33,491 nt of DNA from Fibrobacteria bacterium GUT307 (GTDB lineage Bacteria > Fibrobacterota > Fibrobacteria > Fibrobacterales > Fibrobacteraceae): assembly GCA_001462235.1 (NCBI GenBank), contig LIUI01000083.1, positions 1 through 33,491 on the forward strand. The letters are read 5' to 3'. Below are positions 19,225 through 27,450 of this stretch, in pieces. A program made the position numbers and the translations under genes. Every line of letters starts with the position of its first letter. Positions within the stretch are counted from its first letter, which is position 1. A model generated the notes under the pieces. The model worked only from the letters and a program-made list of their open reading frames with translations, made no database searches and was not told where the DNA came from.

Positions 19225-20043
19225 ATGCAAAAAATATTGAAAATATTGAAAATAATTTATAAGGTACTAAACCAAGCCGTTCGATTGATTTTGCTTGTGT
19301 TTATTTTGTATTCAATAGTTTTTAGCCTTGCATGCACTTATGGCGCATGGAAAGCTTATACTTACGGAAAAACCATTCTGGACGAGGTTGAAGTCTTAAA
19401 AAACTCACAGCCTGCTCAGAGTGCATTCATGAAGGATTTGCACAGAGCAAGTCCAAAGCTGGAAATCAAGCAAAGATTTGTGCCAATGGACAGCATAAGC
19501 CCGTATTTGCAAAGAGCGGTTATAGCCGGCGAAGATGCCGCATTTTATTTTCACCCGGGTTTTGATGTGAGAGCGATTGCAGAGGCTTTGGATGCAAATC
19601 AAAAACGCAATAAAACCATGTTTGGCGGCAGTACTCTAACTCAGCAACTCGCAAAAAATATGTTTCTCTCAAATGAACGTTCTTGGGAACGGAAATTCAA
19701 AGAATTTGCTTATGCCATTTTGATGGAAAAATATTTAGGCAAAGACAGAATTTTGGAACTTTATTTGAATTACGCCCAGTGGGGTCAAAATATTTTTGGC
19801 TGCGAAGAGGCTGCTCAGCACTATTACAAAAAACCCTGCGCAAAATTGAACGTAGATCAGGCAATAAATTTGGTAGCGATGTTAGCCAGCCCCGGCAGGC
19901 ACCATCCGGAAATGCGAGAAAGCCGTTTTATGCAAGAGCGCCGCAACATGATTTACCGCAATATGTTCCCACCCAAAGACTCCCTGCTTGTTGACAGTTT
20001 AAGAAATTTGACTAAACCATTGCCAAAAGAAAGCGCGGAATGA
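19225..20043 (+). CDS. mtgA: Monofunctional peptidoglycan transglycosylase (GT51)
   Basis: MtgA polymerises lipid II into glycan chains without transpeptidase activity. The 272 residues show an N-terminal membrane anchor (about 17-45) and a GT51 domain with AVIAGEDAAFYFHPGFD (catalytic Glu in GED), GGSTLTQQLAKNMFLS, ERKFKEFAYAILMEKYLGKDRILELYLN (in overlapping family blocks) and GCEEAAQHYY. No penicillin-binding domain follows, which separates it from class A PBPs. AGGGG at 19216-19220, four bases before the ATG, supports the start. Its stop overlaps the vsr-like start (ATGA), so the restriction island begins at the very end of this gene. Confidence 0.93.
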   Translation: MQKILKILKIIYKVLNQAVRLILLVFILYSIVFSLACTYGAWKAYTYGKTILDEVEVLKNSQPAQSAFMKDLHRASPKLEIKQRFVPMDSISPYLQRAVIAGEDAAFYFHPGFDVRAIAEALDANQKRNKTMFGGSTLTQQLAKNMFLSNERSWERKFKEFAYAILMEKYLGKDRILELYLNYAQWGQNIFGCEEAAQHYYKKPCAKLNVDQAINLVAMLASPGRHHPEMRESRFMQERRNMIYRNMFPPKDSLLVDSLRNLTKPLPKESAE

Positions 20044-20441
20044 ATATGTCCTTGATAAAAAGCAAAGATACTTCTATAGAAGTTATCTTTCGCAAGGCTC
20101 TCTGGAAGGCGGGATTCCGCTATAGAAAAAATTACAAGAAATTGCCGGGCAAGCCGGATATGGCTTTGACAAAACATAAAATAGCCATTTTTTGCGATGG
20201 CGAATTTTGGCACGGCAAAAACTGGGATGAGGACAAGGAGAGAATAAAAAGCAACCGTCCTTATTGGCTTCCAAAAATTGACAGGAACATACGGCGAGAT
20301 TTTGAAACAGATAGAGATTTGAAACTTATGGGCTGGGAAGTTCTGCGTTTTTGGGGCAGAGATATAGAAAAAAACTTGCAGGGCTGCATTGAGCAGGTCA
20401 AGGAAGCAATTTTTTACAGGGAAATTGGGGTGGAGCCGTGA
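20040..20441 (+). CDS. vsr: Very short patch repair (Vsr)-like endonuclease
   Basis: The 133-residue protein has the Vsr layout: IKSKDTSIEVIFRKALWKAG at the N terminus, FRYRKNYKKLPGKPDMAL with the catalytic Asp, IAIFCDGEFWHG, then WLPKIDRNIRRD and GWEVLRFWGRDI. Classical Vsr nicks next to T in T:G mismatches created by deamination of 5-methylcytosine, so it pairs logically with the C5 methyltransferases downstream. Unlike E. coli Vsr, the zinc-binding Cys/His set appears absent (E in place of the Cys of CFWH, GRD in place of WEC). It could instead be a restriction-type nuclease of the same fold. It overlaps mtgA by four bases. A partial copy of its 3' end lies at 22732-22785. Confidence 0.8.
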   Translation: MNMSLIKSKDTSIEVIFRKALWKAGFRYRKNYKKLPGKPDMALTKHKIAIFCDGEFWHGKNWDEDKERIKSNRPYWLPKIDRNIRRDFETDRDLKLMGWEVLRFWGRDIEKNLQGCIEQVKEAIFYREIGVEP

Positions 20442-20444
20442 GGT
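20392..20444 (+). repeat. vsr tail, intact copy of direct repeat 1
   Basis: The last codons and stop of vsr are repeated in direct orientation at 22732-22785. The pair differs at a few positions plus a one-base insertion in the T-run, roughly nine in ten positions identical. Confidence 0.85.
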
Positions 20445-20449
20445 GATTT

Positions 20450-21418
20450 TTATACTGAAAAATCCATATAAAAATTTTCATCGTCAATTTTATAAAAATC
20501 AATATCTGTTCTGCCATAACGTTCCAAATCTTTTTTCCATATTGGTGCACCATTAGACAACTCAAGTCTATTTCTAAAGTACTCCCCCAACAAAGCGTTA
20601 TTGTGAGGCGTTTCTATAGCCGCGCCAGTAGTTCCAGTTTTTTGGGCGCGACAGCAAATAAAGGTTTTTGAGTCATCGGTTGTTACAGTAAAATGCTGTG
20701 GTTTGGGTGGAAAAAAATCGCTTTTATAGACATCAGGGGGTAATTGAATATACGCTTGATTGGGATTTCTCCTATATTCGGGGCGTTGCCCCCAATTCAA
20801 ACCAGCTTTCTTTTGTACTTCTCCTGTTTTTTTATCTAGTAATGTTATTCTTTTGAGATTGTTAGTATGAATTGAATTATCTTTACTCACTTCTTCGTGT
20901 GGATGATTGGGATAATAATTTCTATCATTGCAAATAGGAATAAGAGATTCTATTTCTTGGTTATTACAATAAATAGAATCTTTTTCTAATAATTTGTAAT
21001 AATCAGTAACATTGCTATCTCTAATTTCGGATAATATTTCTCGCTGTTTTTTAAAAAAAGCATTTTGCGTATAGTTTGCGGAGCCTATAAATGATTTATA
21101 TAATTTATTTCTTCTATACCAAATGTATATTTTACTATGTACAGATGGAAGTTTAAAAATGTAACTACATGAAAATTTACTAGAATAATTTGAATTAATT
21201 ATATTTAAAAAACCATTGTGATTACTTAAAGAAATTCCATCTGTTGGACACATACCTAATAATAATGAAATATTAGCTTCAAGTCGTTTTTTTCTTAATT
21301 CTTCCAAATGATGAAAAGCCATTGCCGACGTTGCGTATCCAGAAATAATTTTAAGTGTATCCGCACCTTCTCGACAAGGTTTTATTAAAACTTCTTCATA
21401 TAAGTTTGTATATATCAT
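20450..21418 (-). CDS. Type II restriction endonuclease, PLD-type (NgoFVII-like), R-M system 1
   Basis: The 322-residue protein has the phospholipase-D-like nuclease signature: an N-terminal half with IISGYATSAMAFHHLEEL and LLLGMCPTDGI, then the half-site SVHSKIYIW (H94, K96) followed by FIGSANYT (G112-N115). This arrangement fits NgoFVII-family restriction enzymes (NgoFVII recognises GCSGC), which act as dimers through one HxK site per subunit. Specificity here is inferred, not shown. The ATG overlaps the stop of the methyltransferase by four bases, so the two are translationally coupled. The gene is clearly more AT-rich than the chromosome flanks, suggesting transfer. It is convergent with vsr with an 8-base gap. 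Confidence 0.78.
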   Translation of the reverse strand: MIYTNLYEEVLIKPCREGADTLKIISGYATSAMAFHHLEELRKKRLEANISLLLGMCPTDGISLSNHNGFLNIINSNYSSKFSCSYIFKLPSVHSKIYIWYRRNKLYKSFIGSANYTQNAFFKKQREILSEIRDSNVTDYYKLLEKDSIYCNNQEIESLIPICNDRNYYPNHPHEEVSKDNSIHTNNLKRITLLDKKTGEVQKKAGLNWGQRPEYRRNPNQAYIQLPPDVYKSDFFPPKPQHFTVTTDDSKTFICCRAQKTGTTGAAIETPHNNALLGEYFRNRLELSNGAPIWKKDLERYGRTDIDFYKIDDENFYMDFSV

Positions 21419-22563
21419 GCTATTTTATACTCCGGCATTTTTTCTAAAAGAAGCATTTGTTGGGGGTTTTTTATATTATAAAGATCAATTTGTTTTGAAT
21501 GTATTATAGGCGATAAATTGTACTCATCATAATCGTAGTTAACACCAGCAAAACTTTTAAGAACTGCTTCGAATATAATTTTAACACCTGCTACAGGAAC
21601 TGCCATTCCTATTTGTTTGCGTACGCTTTCTTTAGAACCTGCGAAAATAAAATCATCGGGAAATGTTTGTAACCTCGCTCGCTCTCTATTTGTTAAAGCA
21701 CGATTTTCTTTCCAATGGTATACATGGGTTCCGCCGCCACCCGAACCTGTAATTGTATATGCAGGTTTATTTGGATCAAGCCTGCGATATATTTGACTTA
21801 TTTTGGCACCAGCTACTCTTAGCTGATATTTTTCTGGAATATCAGCTGTAAAAGCATTTTCGCCTGGTCTAATAAATTTTAATCTCTCAATAACATCTTC
21901 TGATTGCTTAGTCGGCTCGTTATTTTTAGCATCAATTGGAATAGGGGGGTCTTCGATAGCACTTCTGCTTGTTTTAATTTTAAATTTATTTACAGAAGGC
22001 ACCCTATATACAATGTGTTGATCTCTGCGAATTCCTATAATAATAATTCTATGGCGTGCCTGCGGAACGCCATATTCTTCAAATTTGTAAAGATGTGGAT
22101 ATATGGAATATCCGGCAGAAAACATGTCGTTAAGTATTGCAGAAAAAGCTTTACCATCATTTGCGTTGCGAAGACCGCCAACATTTTCTGCTAAAAACCA
22201 TTTTGGTTGAAATTTCTTCAGTACTTGTATACCGTATGAATACAATGGGCCATAGACTCCATCCATGCCTTTTTGTTCACCAACCATGCTAAAATCATTG
22301 CAAGGAAAACCAAATGCCAAGGCGTCTATATCAGATATTTTTTCTAATTTGTTAAAGTCTAATTTTCTGATATCACAACATACAACCGTTCCTTTTTTCT
22401 TAGCAACATTATGTTCATAAGTTGCACAAGTGTCTTTGTCATAATCATTTGCCCAAGCATGAATTATTTTAAAATTCGGGTCTTTAATATGGGCAATTTT
22501 AGCAGCATAGCCTATGCCACCAGGTCCGCAAAAAAGTTCGCCAAGCTTAAATTTCATACACAA
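21415..22563 (-). CDS. DNA (cytosine-5) methyltransferase, R-M system 1
   Basis: The 382-residue protein carries the C5-methyltransferase motifs: motif I ELFCGPGGIG for AdoMet binding, motif IV GFPCNDFS with catalytic C88, motif VI ENV at 126-128, motif VIII QARHR, a target-recognition region including GSGGGGTHVYHW, and a C-terminal motif X (KQIGMAVPV). It should protect the sites cut by the PLD-type nuclease encoded immediately downstream. A second in-frame ATG at 22557 is an equally plausible start (protein beginning MKFKLGE). A promoter-like TATATT on the minus strand (22597-22592) lies 28 bases upstream, inside a perfect inverted repeat. The AT-rich composition contrasts with the flanking genes. 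Confidence 0.9.
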   Translation of the reverse strand: MCMKFKLGELFCGPGGIGYAAKIAHIKDPNFKIIHAWANDYDKDTCATYEHNVAKKKGTVVCCDIRKLDFNKLEKISDIDALAFGFPCNDFSMVGEQKGMDGVYGPLYSYGIQVLKKFQPKWFLAENVGGLRNANDGKAFSAILNDMFSAGYSIYPHLYKFEEYGVPQARHRIIIIGIRRDQHIVYRVPSVNKFKIKTSRSAIEDPPIPIDAKNNEPTKQSEDVIERLKFIRPGENAFTADIPEKYQLRVAGAKISQIYRRLDPNKPAYTITGSGGGGTHVYHWKENRALTNRERARLQTFPDDFIFAGSKESVRKQIGMAVPVAGVKIIFEAVLKSFAGVNYDYDEYNLSPIIHSKQIDLYNIKNPQQMLLLEKMPEYKIA

Positions 22564-22591
22564 AGCCTACACCTGTAAATCATTGGAAATA

Positions 22592-22627
22592 AATATAGAA
22601 AAATATTTTTGTGCATTTTTCTATATT
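22592..22627. promoter_or_regulatory. Divergent promoter pair within a perfect 13-bp inverted repeat
   Basis: AATATAGAAAAAT (22592-22604) and ATTTTTCTATATT (22615-22627) are exact inverse complements separated by ten bases. Each arm is the promoter-like TTTTTCTATATT seen elsewhere, so the element can drive methyltransferase 1 leftward and the scar plus R-M system 2 rightward. It could also be an operator. Confidence 0.5.
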
Positions 22628-22630
22628 GAA

Positions 22631-22730
22631 TCCTTGCACAAATGAAAATTTTCCTCCTCCTTATTGCTCCCACCCTAGCTTTTGCCGCATTCTACGGCAA
22701 CCAAAGTGGCATAAATTGGAAAAGCGCGGA
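22631..22730 (+). repeat. Truncated copy of the start of the 24532 gene (direct repeat 2)
   Basis: These 100 bases match 24521-24620 with about ten differences. They contain the leader TCCTTGCACAA, the ATG (22642) and about 30 codons including the signal peptide. The match begins just after the TATATT at 22622-22627 and stops where the vsr-tail copy begins. Confidence 0.9.
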
Positions 22731-22782
22731 AAGCAGATCAAGGAAATGTTTTTTTTACAGGGAAATTGGGGTAGAGCCGTGA
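22642..22782 (+). pseudogene. Chimeric 46-codon ORF: gene-start fragment fused to vsr tail
   Basis: The ATG of the duplicated gene start reads through about 30 codons (signal peptide LLLIAPTLAFAAFYGNQSG) and then, because of a one-base insertion in the vsr-tail copy, continues in the vsr frame to end YREIGVEP and stop. It is a by-product of the rearrangement. A promoter-like TATATT ends 14 bases upstream, so it may be transcribed and could yield a short secreted peptide. I assign no function. Confidence 0.6.
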
Positions 22783-22785
22783 GGT
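22732..22785 (+). repeat. Truncated copy of the vsr 3' end (direct repeat 1)
   Basis: These bases match 20392-20444 in direct orientation, including the stop codon region GAGCCGTGAGGT, with about 90% identity. The copy abuts the gene-start fragment with no spacer and precedes methyltransferase 2 by 44 bases. Confidence 0.88.
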
Positions 22786-22829
22786 AATGATATTATTTAC
22801 TATATTTGGTAAATGTTTCGGTGCGTTTT

Positions 22830-23780
22830 ATGAGTTATAAGTTCATTGATTTGTTTTGCGGCATAGGCGGTTTTAGAGTAGCTTTAGAAAAACGTGGTTT
22901 GGAATGCGTTTTTTCAAGCGATATAGACCCTTATGCCCAAGAAGTATATAAACAAAATTTTGGGGAAAAACCTAGTGGTGATATTACGGAAATACCCGAA
23001 AAAAAAATACCTAAACACGATATTTTATGTGCAGGATTTCCTTGCCAACCTTTTAGTATCTCAGGTAAGCAAGGTGGCATTTCTGACCCAAGAGGTCGTT
23101 TATTCTATGAAATACAGAGAATAGCCGATCATCACCAACCTTATATTTTACTTTTGGAAAATGTTAAAAATATTTTAACCATTGATGGCGGTAATATAGT
23201 TGAAACAATAAAACGGAAGTTAGAAAAAATTGGATACCATTTAGACAAATACATTTTAAATGCCTCTTATTTTGGTGTGCCACAAGCCAGAGAAAGGGTT
23301 TATTTTGTTGGTTTAAGAAAGGATATGAAAATAACCGATAAACCATCTTTAGCTTCACCTCCAAAGGAAAAATACAAAGCAATATTTTTAAAAGATATTT
23401 TAGAAAAAGAAGTGGATAAAAGTTTTATTGTGAATCGTGACGATATAAAGATAACAAAAGATGAAAATGAATTAGAATGTAAATTAGAACCTATAAGAGT
23501 TGGCATTTTAAATAAGGGTGGACAAGGTGAAAGGATTTACAGCCCTAAAGGTCATGCCATAACGCAATCTGCTTATGGTGGTGGCGTTGGTGCAAGAACA
23601 GGGCTTTACAATACGGAGCAAGGAATTAGACGTTTAACAATAGACGAATGTAAAAAAGTTATGGGATTCCCTACCGAGCATAAAGTGAGCAGTGGTACCC
23701 AAGGTTATCAACAATTAGGAAATGCAGTTGTTCCTGCTATGATAGGTTATGTTTACGATAGCATAAAGAAGGTGTTATGA
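22830..23780 (+). CDS. DNA (cytosine-5) methyltransferase, M.HhaI-like, R-M system 2
   Basis: From the ATG at 22830 the protein has 316 residues; a TTG at 22806 would add eight and is not favoured. Motifs: I FIDLFCGIGGFR, IV AGFPCQPFSISGKQ with catalytic C72, VI LLLENVKN (E110), VIII PQARERVYFVG, and X QQLGNAVVP. The target-recognition region contains LNKGGQGERIYSPKGHAIT and SAYGGGVGARTG, closely recalling M.HhaI (recognition GCGC) over the residues that contact DNA. GCGC specificity is therefore a reasoned inference. TATATTTGG at 22801-22809 could serve as a local promoter. The gene overlaps its nuclease partner by four bases. It is unrelated in subfamily to methyltransferase 1. Confidence 0.9.
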   Translation: MSYKFIDLFCGIGGFRVALEKRGLECVFSSDIDPYAQEVYKQNFGEKPSGDITEIPEKKIPKHDILCAGFPCQPFSISGKQGGISDPRGRLFYEIQRIADHHQPYILLLENVKNILTIDGGNIVETIKRKLEKIGYHLDKYILNASYFGVPQARERVYFVGLRKDMKITDKPSLASPPKEKYKAIFLKDILEKEVDKSFIVNRDDIKITKDENELECKLEPIRVGILNKGGQGERIYSPKGHAITQSAYGGGVGARTGLYNTEQGIRRLTIDECKKVMGFPTEHKVSSGTQGYQQLGNAVVPAMIGYVYDSIKKVL

Positions 23781-24505
23781 GAAACGAAAATAACAAAAAT
23801 GCTTTTGCAGGAATGAATATTGAAGTTTTAATCAAAAACAGCATAGTTGACCATCCCGCTATAATAACAAAACTTAGAGACCATTTCAACATAAAAGGCG
23901 ATTTAGAGAGTGCGGCTTGTGGCGGTATATATGGCGAAAAATCTGATGTTAGAATAAATTTCACTTGCGGTCATTATATTGATGCGAATGTGAAAGGATT
24001 TAAAATAGGCTTTAATCAATTAGCAAGGACAACTGTATCTAGGTTTTGCGAGATTTTTTGCCTTAATTCTTGCGATAAACAAGATTTAGAAAATATTGTT
24101 GTCACTAAGTCTAAAAACACAAAAAATCCATTATTTTCAGAAAAACAACAAGAAAAATGGGGTAATTTCTTTAGAGCCAATGTGAAAAAACTTTTAAGAT
24201 GGGGATTTTCGGAACATCCGAACAGAGAAATTCTTGTACTTTATAATAGAGATACTCAAATAGTAAAAATATACGCTATAAAAGAGATTTTAAGCAGTTT
24301 ACCTACGGATATAGTTTTTACTAAAGGTGGCTTTAATATAGGTGGTTGTATATCATTCCAAAGAAAAGGCGGCAATGGTTCTTTAAGGAGCAAATATCAA
24401 AAAACGAATATTAAACATCCTGGAAATAATATTCAATTAAAAATCAAAGCGAGTAAACTCATAGAGACGTTAGAATCTGTAAAACTTGCGGAGTATGTTA
24501 TATAA
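23777..24505 (+). CDS. Type II restriction endonuclease, HinP1I/MspI-like, R-M system 2
   Basis: The 242-residue protein overlaps methyltransferase 2 by four bases. It carries KSDV (D57) and, 13 residues later, NVK (N71, K73), the SD...(Q/N)xK active-site pattern of the monomeric enzymes HinP1I (GCGC) and MspI. KGFKIGFNQL after the Lys and the C-terminal FNIGGCISFQRKGGNGS resemble the HinP1I region reading NFGRVTIQRKGGDNG, as I recall it. This agrees with the M.HhaI-like partner and supports a GCGC target. The gene is AT-rich relative to its flanks. The next gene starts only 26 bases downstream without an obvious promoter. Homology was judged by eye. Confidence 0.72.
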   Translation: MRNENNKNAFAGMNIEVLIKNSIVDHPAIITKLRDHFNIKGDLESAACGGIYGEKSDVRINFTCGHYIDANVKGFKIGFNQLARTTVSRFCEIFCLNSCDKQDLENIVVTKSKNTKNPLFSEKQQEKWGNFFRANVKKLLRWGFSEHPNREILVLYNRDTQIVKIYAIKEILSSLPTDIVFTKGGFNIGGCISFQRKGGNGSLRSKYQKTNIKHPGNNIQLKIKASKLIETLESVKLAEYVI

Positions 24506-24520
24506 CAACTACTGCTAGGC

Positions 24521-24620
24521 TCCTTGCACAAATGAAATTTTTCTCCCTCCTTATTGCCCCTGCCCTCGCTTTTGCCGCATTTTACGGCAACCAAAGTGGT
24601 ATAAATTGGAAAAGCGCAGA
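24521..24620 (+). repeat. Intact copy of direct repeat 2 (start of the 24532 gene)
   Basis: This is the functional counterpart of 22631-22730. Upstream of the shared TCCTTGCACAA the two loci differ completely: the TTTTTCTATATT element before the truncated copy is absent here. Confidence 0.9.
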
Positions 24621-27450
24621 GACGGAGCATTTTTTGGCGCACTACCCTGCAGAGCATAGAGAACGGGCGGCACGGGCAACCGAAATTGCAGAAAGTGTTT
24701 ATGATACTATTACAAATCGCTATAAAATAAAATTGCCAAGCAAGGTTAATCTGGTATTTGAGAATGCTCTTTACAGCAATGGTGAGGCAAATCCCGTTTA
24801 CAATATGATGCGTATTGGGCTTACAAATTGGGATTTCAAAATTCGTGGCTCGCATTCATGGCTAAGAGATGTGGTAACCCATGAGTTTAGCCACTTGGCA
24901 AGTATGCAGAACGGAAGCAAAACGCCATTCCCTTGGATTCAAGGAGTGCAAATTTCTGCAATGGATTTTTACAATGAACGGCAGCAAGTGAATTATGCGG
25001 GATACATTCCCTTTATGATACAGCCTTTTTGGTTTGCAGAAGGCACCGCACAGTTTGAAAGCTATAGAATGGGATTTGACCGCTGGGATACCCACAGAGA
25101 TATGCTTTTGCGAACCGCATTCTTGGAAAACAAGGTTTTGCCCTTGGAATTTATGGAAGACTTTAGCGAGCAGGCTTTGGAAGCGGAGTTAGGGCCATAC
25201 ACCCAAGGTTTTGACATGGTTCGCTACATTGCAGAAACTTACGGAGAAAATGCAATTCCGGAGTTGTGGAAAGAAATGGGAAAAATATCCAACCTTACTT
25301 TAAGCGGGGCATTGAGCAACAAGTTTAACATTACGGAAAAAGAATTGTATAAAAATTGGAAAGAAAACAGAAAAGAGCATTACGAAAAAATTCGTAGTTC
25401 GCTTGGCACACCTATTGCAGGAAAAAAAATAACAAAAGACGCTTCTTACAACGAATTCATCTCTTTGGCAAATGGCAATCTTTACGGGCTTTCAAATTTT
25501 GGCGGAGATTTTTTTGAAGGCGAAGTATTTGAATTGAAAGACACTGTCACTACGCCTTTTGAAAAATTCAAATTGAAAAAACCTTATCTTTCGCAAGGGA
25601 TAAGCATAAGGCAAACACCGGAAGGATTGCTACTAGCTTATGTAAGCTACCAAAACAGAGATAAAAACGGAAAACCTTATTTTGACATAGCCATTGCAGA
25701 TACCCTTGGCAATAATCGTTTTATCACAAAATTCGCAGATGCGGTTTATCCGGATATTTCACCGGATGGGAAACAAGTTGTATTTGCTAGGCGGGAGCAG
25801 AATGGAACGCGGTTTTATTTGTCAATAGCAAGCACAGACACATTGGGGGATTACAGGGACATCGTTGCCCCAAGCGGGGAGGAATTTAATATTTTCAACC
25901 CAAAATTCTCGCCGGACGGTAAACAAATTGCGTATAATTTTTTTGACGGAACAAGCCGAAAAATAATTTTGCCAAACGATACTATTGCATTTGCAGGTGA
26001 TGTCCGCAATCCCAATTGGAGTTTAGACGGTAAAAGCATTTATTTTTCCAGCGATGAGACAGGAATTTTTAACATATACAAAAAGGATTTGCAAACAAAA
26101 AAAATAGAACGCATCACAAATGTTTTAGGCGGTGCATTTTCACCTGTGGCAGATACAAATGGATTGTATTATGTGGGGTATGACAGGGATGGATTTTCTG
26201 TGTATAAAATGACGAATGTAGAGACGGATGTAAAGGATGTAAAGACGGATGTAAAGACGGATGTAAAGACGGATAATTATCCGTCTCTGCCCCCCGAAAT
26301 ATCTTTTGTCAATTCGGAACGGAATTATTTGCCCATTCCACGGATGCCAATCCTTGTGCCTTTGTTTGCCTTTGATGACAGGCCGCCGGATTTTGGTGCG
26401 GTTAATGCCGGGATAAAGATTCCAAAGATTGGGCTTGCATTTGGTTTGAATGACCCGCTTAACAAAAATTTTTTCCAAATAGCTGCTTTGCAGCAAATAG
26501 GCAAATTTGGCGAAGATAGCCAAAGCGATTTATTTGCAAGTTTGGAAAACCGCAGTTTCCCAATTACCCTTAACCTCGCTTTTATGCGAACCAACACGCC
26601 CTCAAAAGATACCGTGCGCTACGAAAACCCGCGCGATCACGAAGAACCGCTTGCCTTAAGCGAATATGCTTCTGAACTTTACAGTGCTTCATTTGCCGCT
26701 TCTTATTCCATTTTCAAAAAAGGGGATTCCTTAGCAGCATTTGCCTCTTATGATTGGCAGGCTTTTAATCTTTACCAAGATGGCTTTTCTTGGGATTATC
26801 ATAAGAGATGGCAATTGGGTTTAATGCTCGGTTTTACCGCCCAAGATAGCTTATTCGCTTTACAAGGTCTTTATTCTTTTGCCAATTCAAATTTATTTAG
26901 GCCCGGGACTTTTGCAGAGAGCTTTACTGTGAGTGATGCCGGGGCTATCATTCCAATTTACAGAAATTTCCGCTTACACGAATTGGCTTTTTCTGCAAAT
27001 TTATCTCTCAACAATCCATTGCAAAAATACGGCAAACTTTCCTTCTCGGCTTTTGGCAGTGGAATTTTGAATTGGAAAAGCACAGACTCAGATACTTTGG
27101 ATAATTTTTACCTGCACCCTCTTGTTATGGAAGGTTACCCCATCTTGGAAAGCAGCGAAAGCTACTTTAGGCAGGGAACAAGAACGGTTTTGGGAGAAGT
27201 TCGCTATAAATTTCCCATTTACAGCGATTTTAGAAAAAGATTTTGGATTTTTACCACGAAAAATTTTAATTTTTCGCTTTTTTCGCAAATAGGCTTTGTT
27301 GAGGAAAAAAAACGGCTGCGAAATTATGGCGTAAACTGGCATTTGGAAAATCGCCTGTTTTATTCCGTGCCTTTTAACTTCAATTTTGGAGTTGCAAGGG
27401 GCTTGGATAGGCCAAAAGACACAAGGATAAAAATTTGGATAGGCATTTGA
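24532..27450 (+). CDS. Predicted outer-membrane protein: gluzincin-type peptidase domain, TolB-like propeller, C-terminal beta-barrel
   Basis: The 972-residue protein starts with a signal peptide (FFSLLIAPALAFA). Residues about 25-260 hold a zinc-peptidase-like domain with HEFSH (117-121) and WFAEGTAQF (E170), the gluzincin arrangement seen in peptidase-MA-like families. Residues about 300-560 contain PD40/TolB-type propeller repeats (ISPDGKQVVFARR, FSPDGKQIAYNFF, WSLDGKSIYFSSDETG). After a repetitive linker (about 563-583) the rest is rich in alternating aromatic strands and ends GLDRPKDTRIKIWIGI, typical of Omp85-like or surface-antigen barrels. The substrate is unknown. R-M system 2 was placed directly before it, apparently displacing its original promoter (see 22631-22730). 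Zinc ligands look intact, so it may be an active peptidase. Confidence 0.72.
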   Translation: MKFFSLLIAPALAFAAFYGNQSGINWKSAETEHFLAHYPAEHRERAARATEIAESVYDTITNRYKIKLPSKVNLVFENALYSNGEANPVYNMMRIGLTNWDFKIRGSHSWLRDVVTHEFSHLASMQNGSKTPFPWIQGVQISAMDFYNERQQVNYAGYIPFMIQPFWFAEGTAQFESYRMGFDRWDTHRDMLLRTAFLENKVLPLEFMEDFSEQALEAELGPYTQGFDMVRYIAETYGENAIPELWKEMGKISNLTLSGALSNKFNITEKELYKNWKENRKEHYEKIRSSLGTPIAGKKITKDASYNEFISLANGNLYGLSNFGGDFFEGEVFELKDTVTTPFEKFKLKKPYLSQGISIRQTPEGLLLAYVSYQNRDKNGKPYFDIAIADTLGNNRFITKFADAVYPDISPDGKQVVFARREQNGTRFYLSIASTDTLGDYRDIVAPSGEEFNIFNPKFSPDGKQIAYNFFDGTSRKIILPNDTIAFAGDVRNPNWSLDGKSIYFSSDETGIFNIYKKDLQTKKIERITNVLGGAFSPVADTNGLYYVGYDRDGFSVYKMTNVETDVKDVKTDVKTDVKTDNYPSLPPEISFVNSERNYLPIPRMPILVPLFAFDDRPPDFGAVNAGIKIPKIGLAFGLNDPLNKNFFQIAALQQIGKFGEDSQSDLFASLENRSFPITLNLAFMRTNTPSKDTVRYENPRDHEEPLALSEYASELYSASFAASYSIFKKGDSLAAFASYDWQAFNLYQDGFSWDYHKRWQLGLMLGFTAQDSLFALQGLYSFANSNLFRPGTFAESFTVSDAGAIIPIYRNFRLHELAFSANLSLNNPLQKYGKLSFSAFGSGILNWKSTDSDTLDNFYLHPLVMEGYPILESSESYFRQGTRTVLGEVRYKFPIYSDFRKRFWIFTTKNFNFSLFSQIGFVEEKKRLRNYGVNWHLENRLFYSVPFNFNFGVARGLDRPKDTRIKIWIGI
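26221..26287. repeat. In-frame ACGGATGTAAAG tandem repeat ending in a 20-bp palindrome
   Basis: Four-fold repetition of GACGGATGTAAA-type units encodes TDVKDVKTDVKTDVKTD. It ends in the perfect palindrome AGACGGATAATTATCCGTCT at 26267-26286. The whole block is bounded by GAGACGGAT (26221-26229) and its inverse ATCCGTCTC (26279-26287). It forms the linker between propeller and barrel of the host protein. Confidence 0.85.

What the first reader, a model, noticed from the sequence alone, without database searches (positions are those of the whole stretch)
22592..22627. Perfect 13-bp inverted repeat made of two back-to-back promoter elements
Both arms are TTTTTCTATATT-type promoter sequence and the symmetry is exact over 13 bp with a 10-bp spacer. 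Overlapping symmetric promoters could coordinate methyltransferase 1 with rightward transcription. The palindrome might also be the binding site of a repressor, or of methyltransferase 1 itself, a known autoregulation mode for C5 methyltransferases.
Basis: partly seen in the sequence, partly recalled or inferred. Interest (0 to 1): 0.55.

Follow-up and report, generated by a model that had tools for sequence, protein, structure and literature searches.

The report
Two promoters placed back to back
The perfect DNA palindrome is best read as a pair of ordinary bacterial promoters pointing away from each other, one for a DNA methyltransferase and one for its neighbour, a layout that recurs between many divergent genes in this termite-gut bacterial genus.

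Summary
The inverted repeat is real: 13/13-bp arms at 22592-22604 and 22615-22627, 10-nt loop. It exceeds chance (0 of 40 Markov windows) but is ordinary for this genome. TTTTTCTATATT is the lineage's promoter -10 region: 114 genome copies against 8 for the reversed control. Random pairs of 41 of its promoters share at least 13 nt in 7.7% of cases.

The left arm points into methyltransferase 1 (M1). The right arm was probably the promoter of the neighbouring 972-aa gene; only a fragment of that gene's 5' end remains here (22631-22730), because a second R-M cassette separates it from the intact copy at 24532. Both single-cassette relatives found keep back-to-back promoters at this junction with different spacing. 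None of 18 M1 relatives from other lineages has the pair. This, and M1's lack of an N-terminal extension, argues against an M1 or repressor operator.

Similar palindromes occur at 81 places in 12 of 12 genomes of the genus and in none of 13 others, mostly between outward-pointing ORFs, often 6-10 nt from a start codon. No transcription data were available, so promoter activity is inferred.

The parts
22592..22604 (-). Left arm: promoter -10 region TTTTTCTATATT reading leftward, hexamer 22597-22592, 34 nt before M1 ATG; predicted start near 22585 (inferred)
   Evidence: (22.1 bits)
22605..22614 (.). 10-nt loop between the arms
22615..22627 (+). Right arm: promoter -10 region TTTTTCTATATT reading rightward, hexamer 22622-22627, 14 nt before ATG 22642; predicted start near 22634 (inferred)
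   Evidence: (17.0 bits)
21415..22557 (-). M1, C5 cytosine methyltransferase (ATG at 22557; a TTG start at 22563 is also open)
   Evidence: (PF00145)
20450..21418 (-). R1, NgoFVII-type restriction endonuclease, downstream of M1
   Evidence: PF09565, PF20731
20040..20441 (+). vsr mismatch endonuclease gene
22631..22730 (+). Duplicate of the 5' end of the 972-aa gene (90 of 100 nt identical to 24521-24620)
22732..22788 (+). Duplicate of the 3' end of vsr (matches 20392-20447)
22642..22782 (+). 46-aa ORF fusing the two duplicates in frame
22791..22806 (+). Promoter-like site before M2 (TATTATTTACTATATT, 14.2 bits)
22830..23780 (+). M2, second C5 cytosine methyltransferase
23777..24505 (+). R2, 242-aa ORF overlapping the end of M2, presumed restriction enzyme (name inferred from position only)
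   Evidence: no Pfam or NCBIfam match; follows M2 in G001 too
24532..27450 (+). Intact 972-aa gene; no promoter-like site of 9 bits or more between 22806 and its start

Best explanation
The palindrome is two sigma-70-type promoters of the host lineage standing back to back, with their -10 hexamers (TATATT) at the outer edges and no recognisable -35 box. Shown from sequence: both arms match the genome's own promoter-like consensus, lie at usual distances from start codons, and back-to-back promoters recur at the same junction in both single-cassette relatives. Inferred: the left promoter makes M1-R1 mRNA; the right one was the promoter of the 972-aa gene and now reads into the 46-aa fusion remnant and perhaps on into M2, R2 and the intact 972 gene. 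The two polymerase sites overlap (predicted starts about 49 bp apart), so only one polymerase should bind at a time. In one relative (G007) the 972 start overlaps the vsr stop, as in an operon; a type-1 cassette points against that direction and cuts 972 off, and the right-hand promoter at its edge would restore expression.
For: 114 against 8 copies in the own genome; TTTTCTATATT pieces top the 8-mers enriched upstream of ORFs in the sampled stretches; consensus WAAAWTTTTCTATATT; scores 22.1 and 17.0 bits; junction scores 19.9/11.9 in G006 and 20.6/15.5 in G004; G004 has a perfect 11-bp repeat with a 4-nt loop; 81 similar palindromes in 12 of 12 genus genomes, 0 in 13 others, 0 in the reversed control; 57 of 59 examined have outward ORF starts within 200 nt on both sides and 47 of 59 within 60 nt, against 944 and 317 of 2000 random positions; 21 of 41 divergent regions in the sample have outward promoter-like sites both ways, 11 within 60 bp; G002's 972 gene has TTTTCTATATT 14 nt before its ATG.
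Against: No RNA data. The matrix is circular for the hexamer. 61 of 127 T[CA]TATATT hits in the sample plus window fall inside called ORFs and 10 precede an antisense ORF. G006's right-hand element is weak (TAAATT, 11.9 bits) and its junction is not a perfect palindrome at the promoters. Outward flanks of the 59 palindromes agree slightly more than shuffles (244 against 209, 14 of 2000 as high), which two independent promoters would not predict. In E. coli, polymerase competition mattered only at high activity (PMC12825309, abstract and passages).
Confidence: 0.8

Rival explanations
1. The palindrome is an operator: a dimeric repressor, or M1 itself, binds it and controls M1 (and rightward) transcription.
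For: Perfect symmetry with a 10-nt loop and position over the promoter; the slight excess of outward symmetry in the genus set leaves room for some symmetric constraint.
Against: Hexamer gap 24, 10 and 9 nt in the three type-1 junctions; the same palindrome type at many unrelated gene pairs (59 sites fall into 51 protein-similarity clusters); 0 of 18 M1 relatives of other lineages carry both halves, 2 of 18 carry one 7-mer half; M1 has no N-terminal extension; no controller-like gene found in the junction.
Confidence: 0.08
2. Only one arm (the left) is an active promoter; the right arm is a decayed relic, so the symmetry has no present role.
For: The right arm now precedes only a 46-aa fusion remnant and scores lower (17.0 against 22.1 bits); M2 has its own promoter-like site.
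Against: The right arm is still a full TTTTTCTATATT, scoring in the top 53 of 792,400 positions.
Confidence: 0.1
3. The repeat is a transcription terminator or an RNA hairpin.
For: Each strand can fold as RNA (-8.2 and -10.0 kcal/mol).
Against: The stem is almost all A-U, the site lies between divergent genes, and the predicted starts lie outside it, so neither transcript would contain it.
Confidence: 0.02

Closest known systems
Overlapping divergent promoters of R-M systems (EcoRV, CfrBI); passages of PMC5333194
   Same: Promoters of a methyltransferase and of a divergent unit overlap so that polymerase cannot occupy both at once
   Different: There the divergent unit is the same system's C and R genes, and EcoRV is C-controlled; here it is a host gene (now a remnant and a second cassette) and no controller gene was found
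Prokaryotic bidirectional promoters of Warman, Grainger and colleagues; abstract and passages of PMC12825309; the 2021 paper was not held
   Same: DNA symmetry gives divergent transcription, and polymerase can bind in either orientation but not both
   Different: Those share one -10 element, with starts commonly 10, 18 or 23 bp apart; here there are two separate -10 hexamers 24 nt apart with predicted starts about 49 bp apart, and separate divergent promoters are expressly not counted in that class
Autoregulating C5 methyltransferases with an N-terminal DNA-binding extension (recalled; no call)
   Same: C5 methyltransferase gene next to a palindrome over its promoter
   Different: M1 has no such extension and the palindrome does not travel with M1

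Membership tests
Overlapping divergent promoter pair | Promoter elements of the host's own type on both strands, pointing away from each other | tested here: met
   Scores 22.1 and 17.0 bits; circular for the hexamer
Overlapping divergent promoter pair | Outward genes at usual distance on both sides | tested here: met
   34 nt to M1 ATG and 14 nt to ATG 22642, but the right-hand ORF is now a 46-aa remnant; intact 972 there in G006 and G004
Overlapping divergent promoter pair | Mapped transcription starts on both strands | not testable with these tools
   No RNA data
Overlapping divergent promoter pair | Mutually exclusive polymerase binding | not testable with these tools
   Inferred from overlap of the sites
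Bidirectional promoter with a shared -10 element | One shared -10 element with starts about 10, 18 or 23 bp apart | tested here: not met
   Hexamers 24 nt apart; definition from PMC12825309 passages
Autoregulating C5 methyltransferase operator | N-terminal DNA-binding extension on the methyltransferase | tested here: not met
   PF00145 match from residue 5; TIGR00675 from residue 7
Autoregulating C5 methyltransferase operator | Operator kept beside the gene in close relatives | tested here: not met
   0 of 18 relatives of other lineages have both halves
Autoregulating C5 methyltransferase operator | Methyltransferase binds the palindrome | not testable with these tools
   Needs a binding assay
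C-protein controlled R-M system | Small helix-turn-helix controller gene beside the promoter | tested here: inconclusive
   ORF list (60 aa or longer) and the 46-aa fusion ORF show none in the junction; C-boxes and shorter ORFs were not tested

The most novel reading that the evidence does not exclude
This termite-gut Fibrobacterota genus packs divergent genes onto compact near-palindromic double promoters (outer span most often 20-24 bp) with leaderless starts on both sides, a geometry outside the described shared -10 class. Antisense R-M cassettes that enter the vsr/972 slot keep such a two-way promoter at their edge, so the host gene downstream stays expressed after insertion.
Probability: 0.35. 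Interest if true: 0.5.

Novelty: new member of a known kind. Interest (0 to 1): 0.3.

Why it matters
It replaces a guessed operator by a lineage-wide promoter signature that could help to annotate gene starts in uncultured termite-gut Fibrobacterota. It also suggests how an R-M cassette inserted against an operon can leave the downstream gene expressed. Leaderless initiation in this lineage is a directly testable prediction.

Tried and rejected
M1 or repressor operator: set aside on variable spacing, recurrence at unrelated gene pairs and absence beside M1 homologues of other lineages.

Terminator or hairpin: set aside on orientation and A-U content.

Palindrome perfected by template switching (quasipalindrome correction): tested by asking whether the arms agree beyond the consensus. 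Outward positions gave 244 identities against 209 expected (14 of 2000 shuffles as high); inward, 24 sites at four positions gave no clear excess. Weak, left open.

Shared -10 bidirectional promoter: set aside on geometry.

The MAFFT alignment of the three junctions misplaced the short junctions and was not used; they were compared by eye and by script.

G012, of another genus, showed a weaker and different upstream motif, so absence of the exact pattern in the 13 other genomes does not show that they lack compact divergent promoters of their own sequence. A shorter pattern, AATATAG-N-CTATATT, was not free of background: 78 sites against 7 in the reversed control for N 2-8 and 156 against 3 for N 9-17.

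The literature searches that bear on this listed no paper that I recognised as describing this element; I saw the listings, and passages of four papers.

Full report
Observation. The finding is exact: 13-bp arms at 22592-22604 and 22615-22627, loop 10 nt. None of 40 first-order Markov windows has such a repeat. To the right, ATG 22642 starts a fragment of the 972-aa gene whose intact copy begins at 24532. To the left, M1 starts at 22557 on the minus strand.

What the arms are. TTTTTCTATATT occurs 114 times in the host genome against 8 for the reversed pattern. In 20 sampled stretches (396.5 kb) its pieces lead the list of 8-mers enriched upstream of ORFs. Aligned sites give WAAAWTTTTCTATATT with no conserved -35 box. 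Of 127 T[CA]TATATT hits in the sample plus window, 45 lie within 150 nt upstream of a same-strand ORF, 11 further upstream, 10 before an antisense ORF and 61 inside called ORFs. A weight matrix from 41 sites, window excluded, gives 22.1 bits for the left arm and 17.0 for the right; its hexamer part is circular because the sites were chosen by it. Of 820 random pairs of these promoters 7.7% share at least 13 nt, so exact symmetry over 13 bp needs no special cause once two such promoters lie back to back.

Recurrence in the genus. AATATAGAAA-N(0-26)-TTTCTATATT occurs 81 times, in 12 of 12 genomes of the genus (9 in the own genome), in none of 13 other genomes of the family, order or class, and never in the reversed control. 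I examined 59 of the 81 with flanks; the choice favoured short spacings. Automatic ORF calls put 36 of 59 between divergent ORFs, 19 inside an ORF and 4 elsewhere. When start codons inside those ORFs are allowed, 57 of 59 have outward starts within 200 nt on both sides and 47 of 59 within 60 nt; random positions give 944 and 317 of 2000. 78 of 116 starts lie 5-10 nt beyond TATATT, which would leave almost no leader (inference). The 59 sites fall into 51 protein-similarity clusters, 46 of them single, so most are separate loci. By hand count, 24 of the 75 sites listed have outer spans of 20-21 bp. In the host sample, 41 divergent regions were scored: 21 have outward promoter-like sites both ways, 11 of these within 60 bp, and 9 of those 11 span 20-27 bp, 8 of them 20-24. 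The window's 36-bp span is looser than that norm.

On leaderless starts one printed statement points the other way: a 2011 paper reports a Shine-Dalgarno signal in Fibrobacteres that is less obvious but detectable (PMC3155529, passages). It concerns the phylum as then known, not this genus.

History of the junction. Among the 11 relatives of the genus, G006 has vsr-R1-M1-972 on one contig and G004 has the same genes on two contigs: single type-1 cassettes. G001 has mtgA-vsr-M2-R2 up to a contig end, and its 972 gene starts another contig: a single type-2 cassette, the link being inferred. In G007 the vsr stop overlaps the 972 start, with no cassette. G003 and G011 have other methyltransferases in the slot; G005 and G008 have mtgA before 972 with no vsr match; G002 and G010 gave only 972 matches in the stretch read; of G009 only a 3' fragment of 972 was found. 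The window holds type 1 and type 2 in tandem, separated by duplicates of the 5' end of the 972 gene (22631-22730, 90 of 100 nt identical) and the 3' end of vsr (22732-22788), fused in frame into a 46-aa ORF. Back-to-back promoters at the M1/972 junction therefore do not depend on the second cassette: both single type-1 relatives have them, scoring 19.9/11.9 bits (G006) and 20.6/15.5 (G004). G004 has a perfect 11-bp repeat with a 4-nt loop; in G006 the right hexamer is TAAATT and the symmetry is imperfect. The gap between hexamers is 24, 10 and 9 nt in window, G004 and G006.

Mechanism. Leftward: M1 and R1. Rightward: formerly the 972 gene, now the fusion ORF and possibly M2, R2 and the intact 972 gene, before which no site of 9 bits or more lies between 22806 and its start. 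M2 has its own site at 22791-22806 (14.2 bits), and G001 has TTTCTATATT between vsr and M2. Overlap of the two polymerase sites implies exclusion at initiation (inference). In E. coli such competition arose only when one direction was strongly active (PMC12825309, abstract and passages). EcoRV and CfrBI are named as R-M systems with overlapping divergent promoters (PMC5333194, passages).

Against an operator. Spacing is not kept. I looked at 18 M1 relatives of other lineages (65-76% identical) out of 80 loci returned: 17 from other phyla by their record titles and one, L177, from Chitinispirillia, another class of Fibrobacterota. None has both halves of the palindrome within 200 nt upstream; L183 and L193 have one 7-mer half each. 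L189 is G006 itself, and L190 was left out because its 5' end is missing. M1 has no N-terminal extension. There is no GCSGC in the junction; that recognition sequence is recalled by analogy with NgoFVII and was not tested.

Organism. G006 corresponds to the public record Candidatus Fibrimonadales bacterium Co191P4bin13 (L189), an order of Fibrobacterota; that the sample is termite gut is recalled from the isolate naming and the termite-gut MAG literature (listing). The window is a whole 33,491-base contig of a 157-contig genome.

Verdict. The element is ordinary for its genus. The compact genus-wide layout with apparently leaderless starts is the more interesting by-product.

Noticed in passing
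window 20040-24532; L063, L064, L067, L070, L075, L076, L078: The stretch between vsr and the 972-aa gene is an exchange slot: different R-M cassettes occupy it in G006/G004 (type 1), G001 (type 2), G003 and G011 (other methyltransferases), and none in G007; the window holds two in tandem. A Neisseria paper notes vsr followed by different R-M systems in different strains (PMC6789123, passages).
   Followed up: partly
genus genomes G000-G011: 78 of 116 start codons beside the examined palindromes lie 5-10 nt past TATATT, suggesting leaderless mRNAs.
   Followed up: partly
22642-22782: A 46-aa ORF joins the signal-peptide-like start of the 972-aa protein to the last residues of Vsr in frame.
   Followed up: partly
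L009 (G010), upstream of the 972 gene: A 14-bp inverted repeat GGTAATGTAGAAAA...TTTTCTACATTACC lies between the 972 gene and a divergent ORF (kinase-like by recall); it extends beyond the -10 consensus.
   Followed up: no
genus genomes: A second recurrent palindrome type, AATATAGTAAAC...GTTTACTATATT, stands beside the TTTCTATATT type; M2's own site (22791-22806) is of this TTTACTATATT form.
   Followed up: no
L177-L185, L187: Relatives of M1 at 65-76% identity occur in bins labelled Treponema, Spirochaetaceae, Azoarcus, Campylobacteraceae, Bacteroidales and Chitinispirillia, usually with an R1-like gene (65 of 80 loci have an R1 match), suggesting wide transfer of the cassette (or mixed bins).
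   Followed up: no
23777-24505: R2 has no Pfam or NCBIfam match, though it follows M2 in G001 as well (52% identical).
   Followed up: no
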